Shown here one piece after another: positions 658 through 45,618 of a stretch of DNA of 64,000 bases (positions are counted from its first letter, which is position 1; every line of letters begins with the position of its first letter). A program made the translations under genes and the position numbers. This DNA is from Actinomycetota bacterium (GTDB lineage: Bacteria; Actinomycetota; Thermoleophilia; Solirubrobacterales; 70-9). Under the pieces are notes generated by a model. That model searched no databases. It saw nothing but the letters and a program-made list of their open reading frames with translations, and had not been told where the DNA came from. The DNA lies in the NCBI GenBank assembly GCA_018268675.1, contig JAFDWB010000084.1, forward strand, positions 186,001-250,000. Reading direction: 5' to 3'.

Positions 658-682
658 GTTTTTACATCCGGGCTGTGATTTA
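658..682. promoter_or_regulatory. Palindromic operator (ACA-N7-TGT type), site 1, before nirA
   Basis: Left arm GTTTTTACA, spacer TCCGGGC, right arm TGTGATTTA. The right edge is 30 nt before the TTG start of the nitrite/sulfite reductase gene at 713. This is one of eleven copies of the same 9-N7-9 palindrome in the window. Confidence 0.6.
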
Positions 683-4453: not shown

Positions 4454-4723
4454 TCAACCTCTGTGGTTCCGGTAATAGGTGGCATTGATCTCGATGTATT
4501 TCTGCCACTCGGGCGGGACCATGTCCTCGGGGGTGATCGCGTCCACTGGACAGGCCTCGACGCAGGCGTCGCAGTCGATGCACTCATCGGGATCGATGTA
4601 GAGCATCTCGTGCTGCTCGTAGTCGGCCTCGTCGGGAGTCGGGTGGATGCAATCGACCGGACAGACCTCCACACAGGAATTGTCCTTGGTGCCGATGCAG
4701 GGCTCGTTGATCACATAGGCCAT
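4454..4723 (-). CDS. fdxA: 7Fe ferredoxin, first copy
   Basis: An 89-residue FdxA-type ferredoxin carrying one [3Fe-4S] and one [4Fe-4S] cluster. The first cluster motif is C-x7-C-x3-CP ([14 protein letters not shown]) and the second is C-x2-C-x2-C-x3-CP ([12 protein letters not shown]). The ATG at 4723 is preferred over the in-frame GTG at 4729 because GGAGG is 5 nt upstream of it and because the paralogue at 14008 also begins MAYVI. It probably passes electrons to redox enzymes such as NirA. It is the first gene of a probable fdxA-membrane protein-narK operon, and the palindrome at 4742-4766 ends 18 nt before its start codon. Confidence 0.93.
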   Translation of the reverse strand: MAYVINEPCIGTKDNSCVEVCPVDCIHPTPDEADYEQHEMLYIDPDECIDCDACVEACPVDAITPEDMVPPEWQKYIEINATYYRNHRG

Positions 4724-4741
4724 GGCCACCTCCGGTCGCCA

Positions 4742-4766
4742 ATTTACACACTTGTTATAGGTAAAT
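4742..4766. promoter_or_regulatory. Palindromic operator, site 2, before fdxA-narK
   Basis: Left arm ATTTACACA, spacer CTTGTTA, right arm TAGGTAAAT (plus-strand reading). It lies 18 nt upstream of the fdxA start at 4723, so close that it must overlap the promoter or the start of the transcript. Confidence 0.6.
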
Positions 4767-7073: not shown

Positions 7074-7098
7074 ATTTATACAGCCGTACTGTAAAAAC
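7074..7098. promoter_or_regulatory. Palindromic operator, site 3, before osmC
   Basis: Left arm ATTTATACA, spacer GCCGTAC, right arm TGTAAAAAC. The arms match at seven of nine positions as an inverted repeat. It ends 35 nt before the osmC GTG at 7038, in the divergent osmC/RIC intergenic region. Confidence 0.65.
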
Positions 7099-7154: not shown

Positions 7155-7179
7155 GTTTACACACTGGATGTGTATAAAC
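7155..7179. promoter_or_regulatory. Palindromic operator, site 4, before the RIC gene
   Basis: Left arm GTTTACACA, spacer CTGGATG, right arm TGTATAAAC. The arms match at eight of nine positions, making this one of the best copies. It ends 8 nt before the preferred GTG start of the RIC gene at 7188 and overlaps a possible upstream GTG at 7170. Confidence 0.7.
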
Positions 7180-7187
7180 TGGAGGAC

Positions 7188-8108
7188 GTGCCTCCCGCGA
7201 TCGACAACGCCTCGACCCTCGGAATGCTGGCGGCCGAGCAACCGCTGCGGATAGCCCTCTTCGAGCGCCTCCACCTGGACTACTGCTGCGGAGGATCGAC
7301 CAGCCTGGACGATGCCTGCACGCGCCGAGGTCTCGACGTCGATTCTGTCCGCGAGCAGATCGAAGCCGTCGATCGGGGCGGCTCCAGGCACGATGAGGCT
7401 GCGCCCGAATGGCGGCCTCGCGAGGCGACCATCGAGGAACTGTGCGACCACATCGTCTCGGTCCACCACGACGGAATGCGCGAGGAGATGCCTCGGATCA
7501 CCGAACTGCTGGAGACCGTGGTCCGCGTCCACGGCGCCGACCACGCCGACCTCGAGGTGGTCGAGCAGGCCTTCGCCTCCCTGCGGGCCGAGTTGGAGGA
7601 GCACATCGAGGAGGAGGAGGTGGTCCTCTTCCCCACCTGCCGGGGGCTCGAGCAGGGTTCCATCGACCCGGCGGGCGTCGAGCCCGAGCTGATCGCTCGC
7701 CACCGGACCGAGCATGAGGCGGTGGGCAGGAAACTCGCGGCGCTGCGCGAGCTGGCGGGGGGCTACGAGCTCTCCCGGGCACTCTGTGCGACCCACCGGT
7801 CCCTGCTCGAAGGGCTTCTACGCTTCGAGACGGACCTCCACCGACACGTGCACGAAGAGAACAACGTTCTGCTCGACCGGGTCGACGCGCTGCTCGACGG
7901 GCCGCCGCTCGCAGGCGCGACGCCGGTCGACGTGCTGGTCGAGGCCCTCGTCGAGCTCGCCGACGCCGGGCGCGCCGAGCGGGCGAGCCGTCTCGCCGCG
8001 AAGGCCTATGCCGGCCTGCGGCGCGGCGAGCCGGATCAGGCCCAGCGCCTCGACGCGCTCATGCACAAGCTGATCCTTTCCCCGCGATACAACGACGACA
8101 AGGAGTGA
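7188..8108 (+). CDS. ric: Iron-sulfur cluster repair protein RIC (DUF542 + hemerythrin)
   Basis: A 306-residue RIC (ScdA/YtfE/DnrN) protein that repairs Fe-S clusters damaged by NO or oxidants. The N-terminal DUF542 (ScdA_N) domain has the signature DYCCGG (Cys33-Cys34) after TLGMLAAEQPLRIALFERL. Two hemerythrin-like His/Glu sets follow, including HHDGMREEMPRI, EEHIEEEEVVLFP, HRTEHEAVG and HRHVHEENNVL, for a diiron site. The GTG at 7188 keeps the whole domain but has GGAGG only 2 nt away. A GTG at 7170 would start inside operator site 4, so translation may be leaderless. It leads a four-gene operon. Confidence 0.88.
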   Translation: MPPAIDNASTLGMLAAEQPLRIALFERLHLDYCCGGSTSLDDACTRRGLDVDSVREQIEAVDRGGSRHDEAAPEWRPREATIEELCDHIVSVHHDGMREEMPRITELLETVVRVHGADHADLEVVEQAFASLRAELEEHIEEEEVVLFPTCRGLEQGSIDPAGVEPELIARHRTEHEAVGRKLAALRELAGGYELSRALCATHRSLLEGLLRFETDLHRHVHEENNVLLDRVDALLDGPPLAGATPVDVLVEALVELADAGRAERASRLAAKAYAGLRRGEPDQAQRLDALMHKLILSPRYNDDKE

Positions 8109-8362: not shown

Positions 8363-8704
8363 GTGACCGACGGCGCTCCCGGGCTGGCCGCGCTGGCCGA
8401 GGATCCCTCGGCGGACCTGGTGCGCGACCTGCTGCACGGGGTGATCGACCCCGAGCTCGGCATCGACATCGTCGAGCTCGGCCTGCTCCGCGAGGTGACC
8501 GTGGAGGCGGGAGTCGCCCGCATCCGCTTCACGGTCACCACCCCCGCCTGCCCGCTCTCCGGCTACATCGAAGACGAGATCCACGCTTGCCTCGCGCAGG
8601 CGCCGAACCTGCGGCAGGTCCTCGTCGAGAGCGAGCTCGACCCGCCTTGGCGCCCGGAGGACATGAGCGAGGTCGCTCGCGAGGCGCTCGGATGGAAGGA
8701 TTGA
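8363..8704 (+). CDS. MIP18/SufT-like Fe-S assembly protein
   Basis: A 113-residue MIP18-family (DUF59, PaaD/SufT-like) protein. The family signature is clear: VIDPELGIDIVELGLLREV at the N-terminus and TTPACPLSGYIEDEI, with its conserved cysteine, in the middle, then DPPWRPEDMSE near the end. Relatives help mature [4Fe-4S] proteins. The GTG at 8363 follows the previous stop by 2 nt, and the gene overlaps the next start at 8692. Its place after RIC and DUF2249 genes suggests repair or rebuilding of clusters after NO stress. Confidence 0.87.
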   Translation: MTDGAPGLAALAEDPSADLVRDLLHGVIDPELGIDIVELGLLREVTVEAGVARIRFTVTTPACPLSGYIEDEIHACLAQAPNLRQVLVESELDPPWRPEDMSEVAREALGWKD

Positions 8705-9912
8705 GCGACCCGACCGGGCTCGGCTCCTCGCGCCTGCTGAGGCGGGCGCCGCTTCTCGCCGCGGCCCTCGTCGCGCTCCTGGCGGGCCTCTGGGCCGGCC
8801 TGCTGCGCCTCGGGATCGGCCTGCCGCCATTGCGCCCGCAGCTGGCCGGCCTGCACGGTCCGCTGCTGGTACTCGGCTTCCTCGGCACCCAGATCGGCCT
8901 CGAGCGGGCGGTGGCGCTGCGCCGGCCGATTCCCTGGCCTTATCTCGCTCCTACCTTCGCGGCCGCAGGCGCCATCTGGCTCCTGGTCGGGCTGCCCAGC
9001 TCGATCGGCCGGCTCCTGCTGGCGCTCGGCGGTGCCGCCCTCTGTGCCGTCTTCATCGCCGTCCATCGGATCGATCCGACCTGGCACAACGCCGTGATGG
9101 GGCTCGGGGCGGTGGCCTGGATGGCGGGAGCGATCGTCTGGCTGGTCGACGATCAGGTCGCTCGCGCGATGCCGTTCCTGGCGGCGTTCCTGGTGCTGAC
9201 GATCGTCGGCGAGCGCCTGGAGCTCTCGAGGATGCGCCGGCCTGCGCCGCGCGCCCGGTCGGTGCTGCTCCTCGCGATCGCCCTCTTCGCCGGCGGCGTC
9301 GTCCTGACCTTGTCGGACCCCGGGCTCGGCGTCCGCGTCGCCGGGGCGGGTCTGCTCGCGCAGGCTGCCTGGCTGGCGCACTACGACGTCGCTCGCCGTA
9401 CGATCCGGATGGTAGGCCTCACCCGCTACATGGCAGTCGCATTGCTCGCCGCCTACTGGTGGCTCGCGGTGGCCGGGGCGCTCTGGCTCTGGGCCGGGGA
9501 ACTCCCGCCGGCCGGCTCCACCTATGACGCGATGGTGCACACCATCTTCCTCGGCTTCGTCTTCTCGATGGTCTTCGCGCACGCGCCGGTGATCGTGCCC
9601 GCGGTGCTGGGCGTCGCCCTGCCGTACCGGCGGGCGATGTATGCCCCGCTGGCGCTCCTGCATGCCGGGCTCGCCCTGCGGCTGTTCGGCGACCTGCAAG
9701 GGGACGTCGCGATCTGGCAGTGGGGCGGAGGGCTGGACGAGGCCGCGATCCTGGCCTTCATCGGCCTTGCCGCCTGGAGCGCGATGAAAGCCCGGCGGCC
9801 TCGGCTCGGGGCCGGCGGTCTGGAACCACGACAGAGCGGGGCATCGCCCCGACCGGCCGCCGGGGCACCGGGCCCGCAGCCGCCCAGACGTGGACATATC
9901 CGATCCAGGTGA
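8692..9912 (+). CDS. NnrS-like polytopic membrane protein, first copy
   Basis: A 406-residue protein with about twelve hydrophobic segments. The pattern LHGPLLVLGFLGTQIGLERAVAL and later VHTIFLGFVFSMVFAHAPVIVPAVLG resembles the NnrS family, heme/copper membrane proteins linked to NO tolerance in other bacteria. Histidines in these helices could bind metal or heme. The ATG at 8692 (MEGLSDPTG) overlaps the SufT-like gene by 13 nt. Upstream extensions of the frame are shadow sequence. The last 155 bases overlap the end of the convergent ctaA gene. The family assignment rests on recalled motifs, so I hold it with moderate confidence. Confidence 0.72.
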   Translation: MEGLSDPTGLGSSRLLRRAPLLAAALVALLAGLWAGLLRLGIGLPPLRPQLAGLHGPLLVLGFLGTQIGLERAVALRRPIPWPYLAPTFAAAGAIWLLVGLPSSIGRLLLALGGAALCAVFIAVHRIDPTWHNAVMGLGAVAWMAGAIVWLVDDQVARAMPFLAAFLVLTIVGERLELSRMRRPAPRARSVLLLAIALFAGGVVLTLSDPGLGVRVAGAGLLAQAAWLAHYDVARRTIRMVGLTRYMAVALLAAYWWLAVAGALWLWAGELPPAGSTYDAMVHTIFLGFVFSMVFAHAPVIVPAVLGVALPYRRAMYAPLALLHAGLALRLFGDLQGDVAIWQWGGGLDEAAILAFIGLAAWSAMKARRPRLGAGGLEPRQSGASPRPAAGAPGPQPPRRGHIRSR

Positions 9913-10810
9913 GCGTCGCCAGCACCACGTGCACCCAGACGATCTCGGTCGGGAGGGCGAGCGCGTACTGGGTGATGCCGACCACACCCTGCGCCGCCAG
10001 CAGCAGGCAGACGAAGGTGAGGGTGACGACGACCTCGGCGCTCGCGCCGCGCCGGCGTGAGAGCCACCAGGCGCCGACGGTCGCCAGACCGAGGACGGTG
10101 ACGATGAGGCCGTGCGCGGCGACGAGCGCGGCCAGGGTCGCATCGCCCCACCAGCCGATCCGGTGAACCATCTGGCCCGTCCCCGAGGCGCCCGCGTGAG
10201 GGCCCGCGGCCGTCGCCGCACTGCCGAGCACGATCACCACGGCCGCCCAGCCGACGAGCACCCGAAGGCCGAGAACCGTGGCTCGATCGCCACCGGAAAG
10301 CCCGATCTCCTCGGGCTCCAGGCGCGAGCGTCGCCACAACTCGAAGGCGGCGATGAGGATGAGCATCGAGATCCAATAGTGCGCCATCACCCAGACCGGC
10401 GCGAGTTTGTAGAGGACCGACTCGCCGCCGACGATCGCCTGGACGAGCACGCCGAACGGCAGTAGCGCGGCAAGCAGCCGGAGATCCCTCCGTGGCGGTC
10501 GCAAGGGACGTCGCAGGTAGGCGCCGACCCAGGCGGCAAGAGCGGCCGCGGAGACCAAGACGATGAAGACGCGGTTGCCGAACTCGATCAGCGAGTAGCT
10601 CTTCAATGGCGGATGGAACGAGGAGGTCGTGCACCTCGGCCAACTGGAGCAGCCGAGTCCCGAGCCCGTGAGCCGGACGGCGGCACCGGTGAAGACGACC
10701 ACGGTCAGCGTCACCAGGGCGGCGAGGGCGACCTTTTCGTAGGTGGCCGCGCCGATCGACCAGCGCTCGCGTCGACCGACGAGCCCGCCCGATCGCGATG
10801 CACCGATCAC
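9758..10810 (-). CDS. ctaA: Heme A synthase CtaA
   Basis: A 350-residue polytopic membrane enzyme that converts heme O to heme A for aa3-type oxidases. The extracytoplasmic loop motif GSGLGCSSWPRC after GAAVRLT is diagnostic, and paired histidines in the helices (EFGNRVF, MAHYWIS, MVHRIG, AAHGLIV) fit the two four-helix halves. The start is GTG 10810, which overlaps the hemQ stop (GTGA), so the two are translationally coupled. The C-terminal tail after about 9885 is not conserved-looking and overlaps the 3' end of the NnrS-like gene on the other strand. The product fits with the CtaD gene at 29.8-31.8 kb. Confidence 0.9.
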   Translation of the reverse strand: MIGASRSGGLVGRRERWSIGAATYEKVALAALVTLTVVVFTGAAVRLTGSGLGCSSWPRCTTSSFHPPLKSYSLIEFGNRVFIVLVSAAALAAWVGAYLRRPLRPPRRDLRLLAALLPFGVLVQAIVGGESVLYKLAPVWVMAHYWISMLILIAAFELWRRSRLEPEEIGLSGGDRATVLGLRVLVGWAAVVIVLGSAATAAGPHAGASGTGQMVHRIGWWGDATLAALVAAHGLIVTVLGLATVGAWWLSRRRGASAEVVVTLTFVCLLLAAQGVVGITQYALALPTEIVWVHVVLATLTWIGYVHVWAAAGPVPRRPVGAMPRSVVVPDRRPRAEAAGLSSRSRRQGR

Positions 10811-11520
10811 GCGCCAGGCGAGACGGAAACCCGCCCTCCCACGACCGTAGGCGCCCCGTCGAGGGCGTCGAGGGCGCGGCTCACCGACGTCGAGACGCAG
10901 GTGAGCATCGGGGTTTCGCGCTCGGTGTACTCGCTCGACTCGGTCGGCCGCAGGTCGCTCACCAGTTCGAGGAATTCGCCCGGGTCGTCGCCCTCGAAGC
11001 AGACCACGAACTCCTGGTCGTCGATCCCGTAGGAGTAGGTCGTGTTGATCGTGATCTCCGGGTACCTGCGGCCGATCTCGATGTGGCTTTTCATGATCCG
11101 ACCGCGCTCGGCGGGCTCGAGGCCGTACCAGCGGCGCTGCTTCACCATCGGATAGAGGAAGAGGTACTTGCGGTCGGAGACGCAGATCTCGGGCCTTGCC
11201 TTCTCCTCCGAGTAGGGCGACTTTTTCGTCATCGAGAGGAACGAGTAGGGCGTCTCGCACCACTTCGCCAGGCCCGACTGGCCGAGCACGACGTGGAAGG
11301 TGTGGATGTCCTCCAGGTTGGCGCTCTGGCTGAGCAGCACCAGGTCGACGTCGCCACGCGTTCCTATGGTTGAGTAGGCGCGCAGCGACCGGTCGATGCC
11401 GAAGTCCTCGCAGGCGGCGAGGAACTCCTGCTTGTCGGCGGCGCGCAGGTCGGCGGGATTCCGGCGCCAGGCAGGGTCAACCTTGAAGAAGCTGAATTTG
11501 GCGAACGTGCGGTCATTCAT
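10807..11520 (-). CDS. hemQ: Chlorite dismutase-family HemQ (coproheme decarboxylase type)
   Basis: A 237-residue Cld-family protein. In actinobacteria this family member normally acts as coproheme decarboxylase, the last step of heme b synthesis. The proximal heme histidine is in MKSHIEIGRRYP (His146), and KQRRWYGLEPAERG carries Tyr132, the expected radical tyrosine of HemQ enzymes. A true chlorite dismutase would need a distal arginine that I cannot place. ATG 11520 is preferred over an upstream ATG at 11538. It is divergent from the SufR-like regulator, with the palindrome at 11554-11578 between them, and is followed by ctaA in an operon. Confidence 0.88.
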   Translation of the reverse strand: MNDRTFAKFSFFKVDPAWRRNPADLRAADKQEFLAACEDFGIDRSLRAYSTIGTRGDVDLVLLSQSANLEDIHTFHVVLGQSGLAKWCETPYSFLSMTKKSPYSEEKARPEICVSDRKYLFLYPMVKQRRWYGLEPAERGRIMKSHIEIGRRYPEITINTTYSYGIDDQEFVVCFEGDDPGEFLELVSDLRPTESSEYTERETPMLTCVSTSVSRALDALDGAPTVVGGRVSVSPGA

Positions 11521-11553
11521 CGAAAGCCCACCCGGCATCCAGGGCGCGGTGTG

Positions 11554-11578
11554 TTTTTCACAGGGTACATGTGCAAAA
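11554..11578. promoter_or_regulatory. Palindromic operator, site 5, between hemQ and the SufR-like gene
   Basis: Left arm TTTTTCACA, spacer GGGTACA, right arm TGTGCAAAA. The arms pair at eight of nine positions. It lies 11 nt before the regulator start at 11590 and 33 nt before the hemQ start at 11520, so it could control both directions and autoregulate the regulator. Confidence 0.72.
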
Positions 11579-11589
11579 ATAGGAGAGTA

Positions 11590-12261
11590 ATGGATCTACC
11601 GAGCAACGGCGACGACGTACTGACCCAGCGCACCCGTGCGCGGATGTTCTCCTGGCTCGCCGAGCACCGGGGACCCGCGAGCACCGAGGAACTCGCCGCC
11701 GCGGTCGGGTTGCACCCGAACGGAGTGAGACGTCACCTCGAGCGGATGCAGGAAGCGGGGCTGGTCGAGCGCAGCCGCAGCACGGGCCGGCGGGGTCGGC
11801 CCGGGGACCTCTGGGCGATCGCCGCCGATGCGGATCCTGGCGGGGAGCGTCCCAGCGGCTATACCGATCTCGCCCGTTGGTTGGCCCGCGCCATCCCGCC
11901 GGGCCGCAACCGCCTGCGGGAAGTCGAGAAGGCCGGGAGGGAAATCGGCCGGGAGCTCGCGCCGAGCGGTCCACAGGACGATCCCACCGAGGGCTTCCGC
12001 CAAGCGCTTGCCTCGCTCGGCTTCCGGCCCGCCCTCGAACCCAAGGCCGAAGGCGGCTTCGTCTGCAGGCTCGAAAACTGCCCTTACAAGGAGTCGGTCC
12101 GCGAGAACCAGCCCATCGTCTGCGCCTTGCACAAGGGCATCACCAGCGGCCTCCTGGCGGAATTCCTCCCGGAGGCCCGCCTGGTCGGCTTCGAACCGCA
12201 CGACCCCGACGTCGCCGGCTGCATCGCCAGCGTCTCGGGATCGATCGACGGTGACGACTGA
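11590..12261 (+). CDS. SufR-like winged-helix regulator with C-terminal cysteine cluster
   Basis: A 223-residue DeoR/ArsR-like regulator. Residues 12-80 form a winged helix (TRARMFSWLAEHRGPAST, ELAAAVGLHPNGVRRHLERM). The C-terminal part carries Cys159, Cys164, Cys178 and Cys211, including the stretch ENCPYKESV and a C-x13-C spacing, much like the [4Fe-4S]-binding SufR repressors of cyanobacteria and mycobacteria. ATG 11590 has AGGAGAG just upstream. The best-matching copies of the regional palindrome include the one at its own promoter. It overlaps the next gene by 11 nt. I infer that it senses NO, oxygen or cluster status and controls the regulon. No suf operon is present in the window. Confidence 0.8.
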   Translation: MDLPSNGDDVLTQRTRARMFSWLAEHRGPASTEELAAAVGLHPNGVRRHLERMQEAGLVERSRSTGRRGRPGDLWAIAADADPGGERPSGYTDLARWLARAIPPGRNRLREVEKAGREIGRELAPSGPQDDPTEGFRQALASLGFRPALEPKAEGGFVCRLENCPYKESVRENQPIVCALHKGITSGLLAEFLPEARLVGFEPHDPDVAGCIASVSGSIDGDD

Positions 12262-13552
12262 CCCCTCCGCTGTCGTCGCCGGCCCGTTGCCGCAAGGGCG
12301 TCGCTGCCGGCATCGGCCGGTACCACGCCGCGACGGTGACCTGCGTCCGACCGACGTGGTCGGATCCTTCTTCGTCTGCGGCATCGCCTTCCTGCTCGCC
12401 GCCGCCCTCGCCGGTCTGATCCAGACCGTCTCGCCCTGGCCGTGGGGAAGCTGGCTGGCGCTGCACCTGGCCTTCGTCGGCGGTGTCTCCCAGCTCGTCC
12501 TCGGGGCCAGTCAGTTCTTTGTCGGAGCGTTCCTCGCCACCGACCCGCCCCCACGTCCGCTGGTCCGCGCCGAGCTGCTGCTCTGGAACCTCGGCGCGAT
12601 TCTCCTCGCCGTCGCCGTGCCCGCGACCGCCGGCGCGGCGATCTGGCTCGCCGTCGGCTGCCTGGTCTTCTCGCTCGGGCTGTGGAGCGTCTCGATAGGG
12701 CTGATGTGGCGCCGTTCACTGCGCCGGACGGTCTGGGCGATCGGCTGGTACAGCAGCGGTGCGCTCTTCCTCGGCTTCGGTGTGATAGCCGGTTCCCTGC
12801 TTGCGCACGCCGTGCCGTGGAGCCACGGCGATCTACTCGCCGCCCACATGTCACTGAATCTCGCAGGCTGGTTCGGTGGCGCGATCGTCGGCACCATGCA
12901 CACGTTCTACCCCTCATTGACCCAGACCCAGCTGCGCTTCCCGCGCCTGCAGGGACTCACGTTCGCCGCCTGGACGGCAGGCGTGGTGGCGCTGGCGATC
13001 GGCTACACCTGGGGCGTCGACCCCCTGGCCGTCGCCGGCTGGCTCCTGCTCTGCCTGGGCGCCGTGGGGTTGCTCGCGAACGTCGCGGCATGCCTGCGCG
13101 GTGCGAGCGGGCCTCTGTCGCTGGCCGCCCGGATCGTCGGGGCCGCCCAGCCGTTCTTGCTCGCCGCGTTGCTCATCGCCACGATCTCGGCCGTGGACGG
13201 CGGACCCGAGCAGGCGCTCACCGGGACCTCACGCGCCGTCGTCGGCACGCTCCTGGTCGCCGGCTGGATCGGCCTCACCGTCCTCGGCTCACTGTTGCAC
13301 CTGCTGGCGGTGGTGATCCGCGTCCGGGGCGGCTTTGCCGCCCCGATGCCGGTCGCGAGGCCTCGGCTCGACGGCGCGATCGCGGCGCTGGCGATGACGG
13401 CGATCGCAGCGCTGTCTCTCGCCCAGGGAACCGGCATCGGCGGTCTGCACGGCCCCGCAGGCCTGCTGCTGCTCGCCGTCTACCTGGTCCTCGGGACGCG
13501 CGTCGCGCAACTCGCAGGCCGCGTCATCGTCTGCGCCCGTCCCAGCATCTGA
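12251..13552 (+). CDS. NnrS-like polytopic membrane protein, second copy
   Basis: A 433-residue protein with roughly twelve membrane helices. HMSLNLAGWFGGAIVGTMHTF followed by YPSLTQTQLRFP, and conserved histidines in LALHLAFVGGVSQ and LLHLLAVVIRV, resemble NnrS or heme-copper oxidase-like proteins. The start is GTG 12251, overlapping the regulator stop by 11 nt. Longer versions of the frame are shadow sequence of the regulator gene. The first third matches the small protein at 3931-4410. It probably acts in NO handling or electron flow at the membrane. The exact family is uncertain. Confidence 0.72.
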   Translation: MTTDPSAVVAGPLPQGRRCRHRPVPRRDGDLRPTDVVGSFFVCGIAFLLAAALAGLIQTVSPWPWGSWLALHLAFVGGVSQLVLGASQFFVGAFLATDPPPRPLVRAELLLWNLGAILLAVAVPATAGAAIWLAVGCLVFSLGLWSVSIGLMWRRSLRRTVWAIGWYSSGALFLGFGVIAGSLLAHAVPWSHGDLLAAHMSLNLAGWFGGAIVGTMHTFYPSLTQTQLRFPRLQGLTFAAWTAGVVALAIGYTWGVDPLAVAGWLLLCLGAVGLLANVAACLRGASGPLSLAARIVGAAQPFLLAALLIATISAVDGGPEQALTGTSRAVVGTLLVAGWIGLTVLGSLLHLLAVVIRVRGGFAAPMPVARPRLDGAIAALAMTAIAALSLAQGTGIGGLHGPAGLLLLAVYLVLGTRVAQLAGRVIVCARPSI

Positions 13553-13957: not shown

Positions 13958-13982
13958 ATTTTCACATCCTTAGTGTCCAAAA
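13958..13982. promoter_or_regulatory. Palindromic operator, site 6, before the second fdxA
   Basis: Left arm ATTTTCACA, spacer TCCTTAG, right arm TGTCCAAAA. It ends 25 nt before the ferredoxin start codon at 14008. Confidence 0.65.
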
Positions 13983-14007
13983 GATGTCGAGACCCGGAGG
14001 AGTCGGA

Positions 14008-14274
14008 ATGGCCTACGTGATCACCGAGCCGTGCATCGGCACCAAGGACAATTCCTGCGTCGAGGTCTGTCCGGTCGACTGCATCCATCCGACCCCCGAC
14101 GAGGGGGGCTACGAGGCAGCGGAGATGCTCTTCATCGATCCCGACGAGTGCATCGACTGCGACGCCTGCGTCGAGGCCTGCCCGGTCGACGCGATCTTCG
14201 CCGAGGACTCGGTCCCGGCTGAATGGGCCCATTACATCGATCGCAACGCCGCGTATTACCGACAGGGCAGGTAG
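14008..14274 (+). CDS. fdxA: 7Fe ferredoxin, second copy
   Basis: An 88-residue FdxA-type ferredoxin, nearly identical over its first 32 residues and both cluster motifs to the product at 4454-4723, but with a different C-terminus ([21 protein letters not shown]). It would carry one [3Fe-4S] and one [4Fe-4S] cluster. ATG 14008 has GGAGGAG upstream. The in-frame ATG at 13984 would extend into the operator. The next gene starts directly after its stop codon, so it heads a three-gene operon under site 6. Confidence 0.92.
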
Positions 14275-15026: not shown

Positions 15027-15365
15027 TCCGCTTGCCGCTCGGTCCGCCCGTCAGAGATGCCAGCCTCAGCGACTGTCCGAGCGAGCTCGGTTGGCGATAA
15101 TTACATTCAGAGTGTGTAAAATGGATATCGACATGGTCGTCACCAGTCCTGACAGCATCAACCCTGGCTCGCTGATCACCGAGGACGCGAGGAGAGAAGC
15201 TCCTCCTGCGCGCCTGCCTATCTGTTGTCAGGCTTGGGTCGCCGAGTCCCGTCACGTCCTACGCCATCCACGGCAGCAGCGACCGAGTTCCCGCACGCCC
15301 GGAGACGCCGATGCCGAGACTCCAGACTCCGGCGAGGAGCCGGATCTGCGAACCGAAGGAGTCTC
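15027..15365 (+). other. Region before the Rieske gene, with a doubtful 82-residue ORF
   Basis: No clear gene lies here. Operator site 7 is at 15097-15121. An ORF from ATG 15121 to the TGA at 15367-15369 overlaps the Rieske start in an ATGA arrangement, which is operon-like, but its translation reads like noise and its start codon lies on the edge of the operator. It could instead be a long leader for the Rieske gene. Confidence 0.35.
15097..15121. promoter_or_regulatory. Palindromic operator, site 7, upstream of the Rieske gene
   Basis: Left arm ATAATTACA, spacer TTCAGAG, right arm TGTGTAAAA. It lies 244 nt before the Rieske start at 15366, the greatest distance of the set. Confidence 0.55.
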
Positions 15366-22324: not shown

Positions 22325-22349
22325 TTTCTTACAGGCGCAGTGTTTGAAA
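22325..22349. promoter_or_regulatory. Palindromic operator, site 8, between narG and the cupin gene
   Basis: Left arm TTTCTTACA, spacer GGCGCAG, right arm TGTTTGAAA. It is 41 nt before the narG start and 108 nt before the cupin start at 22458. Confidence 0.62.
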
Positions 22350-22871: not shown

Positions 22872-22896
22872 TTTCTCACACTACGTGTAGTTAAAT
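22872..22896. promoter_or_regulatory. Palindromic operator, site 9, before gltBD
   Basis: Left arm TTTCTCACA, spacer CTACGTG, right arm TAGTTAAAT. It lies 98 nt before the gltB start codon. Confidence 0.58.
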
Positions 22897-31830: not shown

Positions 31831-31855
31831 TTTTTCACACTTACGTTGGGTAAAT
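31831..31855. promoter_or_regulatory. Palindromic operator, site 10, before ctaD
   Basis: Left arm TTTTTCACA, spacer CTTACGT, right arm TGGGTAAAT (plus-strand reading). It is 18 nt from the ctaD ATG. Confidence 0.6.
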
Positions 31856-44685: not shown

Positions 44686-44710
44686 TTTTACCCATCATGA
44701 TTGTGTAAAG
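44686..44710. promoter_or_regulatory. Palindromic operator, site 11, before the sulfurtransferase operon
   Basis: Left arm TTTTACCCA, spacer TCATGAT, right arm TGTGTAAAG. It is 65 nt before the start at 44776. It is the only copy of this palindrome I found beyond 32 kb. Confidence 0.58.
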
Positions 44711-44775
44711 TCGTGGCGAGACCGAATCCTGATCGGAATCAAGGCAATAGCGACAGAAGACTCCTGGAGGCCGTG

Positions 44776-45618
44776 ATGAACTACGCCAAGGACGTGCTGG
44801 TGGACACCGACTGGGTCGCCGAGCACCTGGACGACGATTCGATCCGGATCGTCGAGGTCGACGAGGACCCCGCCCTTTACGCAAAGGGCCACATCCCTGG
44901 CGCTATCGGCTTCGACTGGAAGGCGGACCTCCAAGACCAGGTCGAACGTAACTTCCTCGGCCCGGAGGCCTTCGGCGGGCTGATGGGGAGCCGCGGCATC
45001 TCCAACGACCACACCGTGGTCCTCTACGGCGACCGCAACAACTGGTTTGCCGCCTACACGTACTGGTACTTCCGACATTACGGGCACGACAAGGTGAAGC
45101 TGATCGACGGCCCGCGCGAAAAGTGGGTCGCGGAGGGACGCGAGACGGTCGCCGATGTCCCGTCCTATCCGGCGGCGACTTTTGCCATCCACTCCAAGGA
45201 CTGCTCGATCCGCGCCTTCCGCGACGAGGTAGCGGCTGCGCTCGGCACGGCCACGCACCTGGTCGACGTGCGCAGCCCGCAGGAGTTCGCCGGCGAAGTG
45301 ATATCGCCCGCGGGCTATGAGCAGGAGGGGGCCCAACGCGGTGGCCACATTCCTGGCGCCGCATCGGTCCCCTGGTCCCAGGCGGTGGAAGAGGACGGGA
45401 CCTTCAAATCGGCCGACGAGTTGCGCGATCTGTACACCGCGAAGGGCGTGATCTCCGGTGACGACCCGATCATCGCCTACTGCCGGATCGGCGAGCGCTC
45501 GGCCCACACCTGGTTCGTTTTGCACGAGCTGCTCGGCGAGGAGAACGTCAAGAACTACGACGGTTCCTGGACGGAGTGGGGAAACCTGGTCGGTGCGCCG
45601 ATCGAGAAGGGCGCCTAG
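44776..45618 (+). CDS. Thiosulfate/3-mercaptopyruvate sulfurtransferase (CysA-like)
   Basis: A 280-residue double-rhodanese protein of the actinobacterial CysA type. The N-terminal half is inactive (DEDPALYAKGHIPGAIGFDW) and the C-terminal half has the catalytic Cys236 in AYCRIGERSAHTW. It moves sulfur from thiosulfate or mercaptopyruvate to acceptors such as cyanide, thiols or Fe-S assembly proteins. ATG 44776 has GGAGG upstream. The next two genes follow closely, forming a possible sulfur-amino-acid operon. Operator site 11 ties it to the Fe-S/NO regulon. Confidence 0.92.
   Translation: MNYAKDVLVDTDWVAEHLDDDSIRIVEVDEDPALYAKGHIPGAIGFDWKADLQDQVERNFLGPEAFGGLMGSRGISNDHTVVLYGDRNNWFAAYTYWYFRHYGHDKVKLIDGPREKWVAEGRETVADVPSYPAATFAIHSKDCSIRAFRDEVAAALGTATHLVDVRSPQEFAGEVISPAGYEQEGAQRGGHIPGAASVPWSQAVEEDGTFKSADELRDLYTAKGVISGDDPIIAYCRIGERSAHTWFVLHELLGEENVKNYDGSWTEWGNLVGAPIEKGA

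What the first reader, a model, noticed from the sequence alone, without database searches (positions are those of the whole stretch)
11590..12261. SufR-like protein is the likely master regulator, wired outside a suf operon
The protein has a winged helix and four C-terminal cysteines (159, 164, 178, 211) like SufR. From memory, mycobacterial SufR binds ACACT-N5-TGTGA, which also has ACA and TGT separated by 7 bases, the core spacing of the motif here. One of the best copies is at its own promoter. The known role of SufR is control of Fe-S assembly. Here it would control nitrate respiration, NO repair, heme synthesis and ammonium assimilation instead, with no suf genes in view.
Basis: partly seen in the sequence, partly recalled or inferred. 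Interest (0 to 1): 0.8.

Follow-up and report, generated by a model that had tools for sequence, protein, structure and literature searches.

The report
ArnR-like nitrate/nitric-oxide regulator, not SufR
A soil actinobacterium (Solirubrobacterales) carries a probable iron-sulfur repressor that sits on its own promoter and on those of nearby nitrate-respiration, nitric-oxide-repair, heme and ferredoxin genes; it looks like the nitric-oxide sensor ArnR rather than the iron-sulfur-assembly regulator SufR.

Summary
The gene, winged helix, four cysteines and palindrome at its own promoter are real. In 62 orthologues only Cys164, Cys178, Cys211 and His181 are invariant; Cys159 is Tyr in 28. That is the three-Cys-plus-His pattern of Corynebacterium ArnR ([4Fe-4S], NO-responsive, represses narKGHJI), not SufR's CQHHC four-Cys pattern. 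The C-terminal domain is predicted to have a TRAPPC3/V4R/H-NOX-like fold, as published (TRAPPC3) for ArnR. SufR membership fails: TIGR02702 19.9 bits against a cutoff of 178.8, no sufB/D in 61 neighbourhoods, and this genome's suf operon has its own Rrf2-like regulator and no site.

The wiring claim holds. A matrix trained only on orthologues' own promoters in other genomes (TTTTnCACA-N7-TGTGnAAAA) finds 11 sites in the window (0 in controls), best at this gene, others before nirA, ferredoxins, osmC, ric, hemQ, narG, gltB, cox1 and a rhodanese. Site and regulator co-occur across 399 genomes (p = 6e-18). Sites overlap the likely -10, suggesting a repressor. It is a separate clade, neither ArnR nor SufR by phylogeny. 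A 70%-identical second copy exists, so "the" master regulator may be two proteins. Cluster, NO sensing and DNA binding are inferred, not shown.

The parts
11590..12261 (+). regulator gene: wHTH (res. ~11-77), helical linker, C-terminal sensor domain with C164, C178, H181, C211
11554..11578 (.). operator in the divergent regulator/hemQ gap, best site in window (34.9 bits); overlaps putative -10
10807..11538 (-). hemQ-like (chlorite-dismutase family) gene, divergent from the regulator
12251..13552 (+). polytopic membrane protein gene overlapping the regulator's 3' end; homologue found near the regulator in 19/61 relatives; no Pfam match even at E<=10
13958..13982 (.). operator (24.7 bits) before ferredoxin 13984-14274 (+)
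7155..7179 (.). operator (27.1 bits) at start of RIC/YtfE/ScdA Fe-S repair gene (7170-8108 +)
7074..7098 (.). operator (24.0 bits) before OsmC-family peroxiredoxin gene (start 7038, -)
4742..4766 (.). operator (24.3 bits) before FdxA-type ferredoxin gene (start about 4723-4729, -)
658..682 (.). operator (14.5 bits) before NirA-family nitrite/sulfite reductase gene (713-2593 +)
15097..15121 (.). operator (16.2 bits), about 240 bp before a Rieske ferredoxin gene (15363 +); target gene uncertain
22325..22349 (.). operator (20.1 bits) before narG (start 22283, -), first gene of narGHJI
22872..22896 (.). operator (20.2 bits), 98 bp before gltB, glutamate synthase large subunit (22995 +)
31831..31855 (.). 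operator (28.6 bits) before cytochrome oxidase subunit I gene (start 31815, -)
44686..44710 (.). operator (27.4 bits) before rhodanese/3-mercaptopyruvate sulfurtransferase gene (44701-45618 +)

Best explanation
A dimeric winged-helix repressor whose C-terminal TRAPPC3/V4R-like domain holds a [4Fe-4S] cluster through Cys164, Cys178, Cys211 and probably His181. The cluster-loaded dimer binds TTTTnCACA-N7-TGTGnAAAA over the -10 region of its own promoter and of a local regulon (narGHJI, nirA, ric, ferredoxins, osmC, hemQ, cox1, gltB, rhodanese; elsewhere nuoA and a HesB-like gene). When nitrate/nitrite reduction produces NO, nitrosylation of the cluster releases the repressor, so the nitrate-respiration, repair and electron-transfer genes come on together. 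Sequence evidence shows the family, the conserved ligand set, the operator and the target promoters. Binding by this protein, and repression, are strongly inferred. The cluster and NO as the signal are inferred from ArnR.
For: Palindrome ending 7-11 nt before the orthologues' own start codons: at least 11/16 consensus letters in 47/62 upstream regions, no internal control above 9. Matrix from other genomes: 11 window sites against 0; 138 sites in 60 relatives' loci against 2 with the reversed matrix. Own genome at <=1 mismatch: 13 sites, 0 in control; 7 in this 64-kb window and 3 around the paralogue. Sites also conserved in relatives before Fdx 38/45, RIC 4/4, cox1 4/4, FeS_assembly_P 5/7 and nirA 2/2 at >=10 bits. 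Site-regulator co-occurrence 29/63 against 11/336 genomes, p = 6e-18. Invariant C164/C178/C211/H181 in 62/62; 14-residue C1-C2 spacing as in the ArnR orthologue next to narI. In a same-genus relative (L042) the regulator sits 62 bp downstream of narI, as arnR follows narKGHJI (PMC12343034). C-terminal model (pLDDT 93) matches TRAPPC3, V4R and H-NOX; TRAPPC3 similarity is published for ArnR. (A/G)AnACT -10-like element kept in several orthologues where the palindrome is lost.
Against: No spectroscopy, binding or expression data. Exclusive sisterhood with ArnR is rejected (AU p 0.025), so function is transferred by motif and context, not orthology. narG sites score >=10 bits in only 3/10 relatives. 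34 of 63 regulator genomes lack an exact site at the strict pattern; 11 genomes have a site but no detected regulator, including three of the same genus. A paralogue could be the real binder. Foldseek E-values are weak (best 1.7e-3). The proposed -10 is unmapped.
Confidence: 0.62

Rival explanations
1. It is a diverged SufR: a four-Cys [4Fe-4S] regulator that left the suf operon and took over other promoters.
For: Recognition-helix sequence GVRRHL identical to SufR; sufR promoters contain ACA-N7-TGT; holding the two groups together as one clade is not rejected (AU p 0.17).
Against: Fourth Cys not conserved (18/62 Cys, 28/62 Tyr) and no CQHHC; TIGR02702 19.9 bits vs 178.8 over the HTH only; 0/61 neighbourhoods with sufB/D; SufR forms its own clade, 100/100; this genome's suf has an Rrf2-like regulator and no site.
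Confidence: 0.1
2. Same operator and regulon, but the signal is O2, redox or Fe-S/iron status rather than NO.
For: Targets include cox1, ferredoxins, nuoA, osmC and a HesB-like gene, broader than NO defence; Fdx is the commonest conserved neighbour (45/61); SufR-type proteins can read cluster status (PMC11995493).
Against: RIC, nar and nirA among targets; the characterised three-Cys relative ArnR degrades only very slowly in O2 and responds to NO (PMC12343034).
Confidence: 0.25
3. The C-terminal domain binds zinc or a small hydrophobic ligand, as other V4R/TRAPPC3 domains do, and there is no Fe-S cluster.
For: Fold matches TRAPPC3, MopR/DmpR and BcsD; TRAPPC3/V4R domains bind Zn or phenols/palmitate (PMC10933270).
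Against: Cys3-His layout matches ArnR, where each Cys is needed for the Fe-S cluster (PMC12343034); regulon rich in Fe-S and NO-repair genes.
Confidence: 0.08
4. The palindromes belong mainly to the paralogue at C71:55207-55875, or to both copies as homo- and heterodimers (compatible with the best explanation's mechanism).
For: 70% identical, identical recognition-helix segment HPNGVRRHLER; three sites around it.
Against: The best window site is at this gene's own promoter, and most relatives have only one copy with the same site.
Confidence: 0.3

Closest known systems
ArnR (Corynebacterium glutamicum Cgl1185/cg1340), PMC12343034
   Same: wHTH + TRAPPC3-like sensor; CP[FY]-...-VCA[IL]HxG-...-C with three Cys and a His; genetic linkage to narGHJI; represses nitrate respiration and NO-defence genes
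   Different: Different clade (AU p 0.025); ~20% identity; probably a different operator (no ACA-N7-TGT palindrome found around narK or arnR in the ArnR-orthologue locus); own-promoter site here; far wider predicted regulon with fdx, cox1, hemQ, nirA, gltB; RIC instead of Hmp in view
SufR (actinobacterial, e.g. cg1765, Rv1460)
   Same: wHTH of the ArsR/DeoR-like type, C-terminal cysteines, GVRRHL recognition helix, operator over its own promoter
   Different: SufR has 4 Cys (CQHHC...C...C), sits in suf, binds AACACTAGTGTT-type sites; none of these apply here
Rv2621c and other three-Cys actinobacterial regulators (COG2345-like)
   Same: Three-Cys/His signature in 27/27 phylum-wide hits examined; highest profile score, 133.8 bits. 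Rv2621c is called ArnR-like in PMC12343034
   Different: Function unknown; no operator known to me
NsrR (Rrf2 family)
   Same: Functional analogue: Fe-S, NO-responsive repressor
   Different: Unrelated family; only a weak HTH match to Rrf2 (21.8 bits, below cutoff 30)

Membership tests
SufR | NCBIfam TIGR02702 (SufR_cyano) above cutoff | tested here: not met
   19.9 vs 178.8 bits, HTH part only
SufR | four conserved C-terminal Cys (CQHHC...C...C) | tested here: not met
   3 invariant Cys + His; Cys159 in 18/62; 9/9 sufB-linked SufRs have CQHHC, 0/62 here
SufR | linked to and controls suf operon | tested here: not met
   0/61 neighbourhoods with sufB/D; no site in own suf region
SufR | operator type | tested here: not met
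   sufR promoters conserve AACACTAGTGTT; here CACA-N7-TGTG with unconserved centre
SufR | falls in SufR clade | tested here: inconclusive
   outside the 100/100 SufR clade; union not rejected, p 0.17
SufR | [4Fe-4S] cluster | not testable with these tools
   needs protein
ArnR | three Cys + His signature | tested here: met
   62/62; C1-C2 spacing 14, C2-C3 33 (ArnR 14, 30)
ArnR | TRAPPC3-like sensor domain | tested here: met
   7b6d TMq 0.66, prob 1.00, E 2e-3, a weak E-value; published for ArnR
ArnR | linkage to narGHJI | tested here: met
   window narGHJI at 15.7-22.3 kb; 14/61 relatives within the fetched stretch, directly downstream of narI in L042, L053, L098
ArnR | orthologous clade | tested here: not met
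   separate clade, AU p 0.025: works like ArnR, not filed as ArnR
ArnR | [4Fe-4S] cluster, NO-dependent release from DNA | not testable with these tools
   needs protein
NsrR/Rrf2 | Rrf2 domain above cutoff | tested here: not met
   PF02082 21.8 vs 30 bits, HTH only

The most novel reading that the evidence does not exclude
A previously undescribed, widespread actinobacterial class of [4Fe-4S] regulators with a sensor domain of the H-NOX/TRAPPC3/V4R fold, the fold of heme NO sensors, re-equipped with an Fe-S cluster. In Solirubrobacterales it runs a whole nitrate-to-glutamate plus NO-repair plus respiratory-chain regulon from one operator type.
Probability: 0.4. Interest if true: 0.75.

Novelty: new variant of a known kind. 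Interest (0 to 1): 0.56.

Why it matters
It gives a testable operator and regulon for a regulator clade with no known function, in an order (Solirubrobacterales) for which my literature search found no such work. It suggests that the ArnR mechanism, known from Corynebacterium, belongs to a much larger three-Cys actinobacterial family including Rv2621c-like proteins, and that these regulators should not be annotated as SufR.

Tried and rejected
One protein alignment (A1) mixed wrong-strand translations and was discarded for A2. Identifying G1056 as C. glutamicum by mass failed (26264 vs 26166 Da), but Cys spacing and narI adjacency mark its ArnR orthologue. The V4R Pfam model finds nothing in this genome, so the fold claim rests on structure comparison only. 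The membrane protein at 12251-13552 was first thought NnrS-like (and is labelled so in scripts); Pfam gives no match, so that name is dropped. The M. tuberculosis and S. avermitilis SufR papers were not held, so ACACT-N5-TGTGA was checked on sequences instead.

Full report
WHAT IS THERE. The window is positions 186001-250000 of contig C82 of a 4.2-Mb genome; the only named relative found is a Solirubrobacterales MAG. The ORF at 11590-12261 encodes 223 aa with an N-terminal winged helix. The palindrome at 11554 lies 11 bp upstream of its start codon, in the divergent gap to a hemQ-like gene.

THE CYSTEINES. I collected 61 relatives (>=43% identity) from the same class. Across all 62 sequences Cys164, Cys178, Cys211 and His181 are invariant; position 159 is Cys in 18 and Tyr in 28. 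All nine carry CQHHC...C...C, four cysteines, with the spacing of the published positions 171/175/188/216 of C. glutamicum SufR (PMC11995493). I identified the ArnR orthologue by its place directly downstream of narGHJI; its Cys spacing (14 and 30) equals the published Cys179/193/223. The window family shares ArnR's CP[FY]...VCxLHxG...C layout. The paper on ArnR reports a [4Fe-4S] cluster, a dimer, three essential Cys and a conserved His nearby, loss of DNA binding on nitrosylation, and a TRAPPC3-like sensor domain (PMC12343034).

STRUCTURE. AlphaFold2 on 22 sequences gave pLDDT 85.6 for the whole protein and 93.2 for the sensor domain alone. Foldseek of the sensor domain returned BcsD, TRAPPC3/Bet3, H-NOX and DmpR/MopR V4R domains, with TM-scores about 0.4-0.7 but weak E-values (best 1.7e-3). 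These share a known fold relationship (PMC10933270). The match to TRAPPC3 repeats independently what was published for ArnR. The H-NOX similarity is suggestive only.

PHYLOGENY. The Solirubrobacterales clade is well supported (97/98) and separate from ArnR (100/100) and SufR (100/100). Forcing it with ArnR is rejected (p 0.025); forcing it with SufR is not (p 0.17). Profile scores of the window protein are ArnR 48.8, SufR 27.3 and other three-Cys phylum members 133.8 bits. The three-Cys signature is widespread (27 of 27 phylum hits examined), so it may be ancestral and SufR's fourth Cys derived. The protein works like ArnR but is not an ArnR orthologue; it belongs to a third clade.

THE OPERATOR. 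Upstream of the orthologues a 25-bp palindrome TTTTnCACA-N7-TGTGnAAAA recurs: 47 of 62 upstream regions match at 11 or more of 16 positions, against 0 of 62 internal stretches above 9. A matrix from 36 such sites, excluding this genome, finds 11 window sites of 14 bits or more; 30 Markov controls give none. Genome-wide, <=1 mismatch to the degenerate pattern gives 13 sites and 0 in the control, and <=2 gives 16 and 1. Seven of the 13 lie in this window and three around the paralogue on C71. In 399 genomes of the class, an exact site occurs in 29 of 63 with a strong orthologue and 11 of 336 without (p = 6e-18; related genomes are not independent, so the p-value overstates). Exceptions include three same-genus genomes with sites but no detected regulator.

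THE REGULON. Window sites precede nirA (658), fdxA-like ferredoxin (4742), osmC (7074), ric/ytfE (7155), regulator/hemQ (11554), a second ferredoxin (13958), a region before a Rieske ferredoxin (15097), narGHJI (22325), gltB (22872), cytochrome oxidase subunit I (31831) and a rhodanese (44686). Elsewhere they precede nuoA (C69) and a small HesB-like gene (C79; my reading of the sequence, no Pfam match); the C93 site falls inside coding sequence and may be spurious. In relatives, sites recur before ferredoxin (38/45), ric (4/4), cox1 (4/4), FeS_assembly_P (5/7) and nirA (2/2 at >=10 bits); narG is weaker (3/10). Ferredoxin is often divergent from the regulator within 100 bp, so part of those 38 share one intergenic region with the regulator's own site. 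Neighbourhoods hold ferredoxin in 45/61, the membrane protein in 19/61, nar genes in 14/61, sufB/D in 0/61. The genome's suf operon lies on C93 behind an Rrf2-type ORF and has no site.

DIRECTION OF CONTROL. The site's right half ends 7-11 nt before the start codon in most orthologues and runs into an (A/G)AnACT element. That element stays at the same place in several orthologues that have lost the palindrome (e.g. GAGACT in L059, L069, L088). The simplest reading is a -10 box of a nearly leaderless transcript covered by the operator, hence repression. This is inference; no start site is mapped.

SufR OPERATOR COMPARISON. The recalled ACACT-N5-TGTGA occurs exactly in one Mycobacterium and one Corynebacterium sufR promoter, and ACA-N7-TGT in all nine. 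But the strongly conserved palindrome there is AACACTAGTGTT, centred 1.5 bp off the ACA/TGT axis and occupying what is unconserved spacer in the present motif. The published SufR site is CAAC-N6-GTTG, GAAC-N6-GTTG in C. glutamicum (PMC11995493, PMC8593673). The likeness in half-sites is real but not identity.

VERDICT. A real, well-wired, probably NO-responsive Fe-S repressor of a nitrate/NO/respiration regulon. It resembles ArnR in sensor, context and likely logic, differs in operator, clade and breadth, and is not SufR.

Noticed in passing
G000:C71:55207-55875 (L004, L006): Second copy of the regulator, 70% identical, divergent from a cytochrome oxidase subunit I gene and followed by the same membrane protein and ferredoxin order as in the window; three operators around it.
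   Followed up: partly
window 8363-8704 (+): FeS_assembly_P (MIP18/SufT-like) gene downstream of ric; in 5 of 7 relatives' loci its homologue has its own strong operator.
   Followed up: partly
window 12251-13552 and 8587-9912: Two polytopic membrane proteins with no meaningful Pfam match; the first is repeatedly linked to this regulator (19/61 relatives).
   Followed up: partly
L102 14435-14970 (G000:C93): Rrf2/IscR-like ORF directly upstream of sufC, the likely suf regulator in this genome.
   Followed up: partly
G300, G368, G398 (same genus): Genomes with one to three exact operators but no detected regulator gene; gene loss, MAG gaps or another binder.
   Followed up: no
L177, upstream of narK (G1056): Palindrome TACGGGAATTTCCGTA before Corynebacterium narK; candidate ArnR operator, untested.
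   Followed up: no
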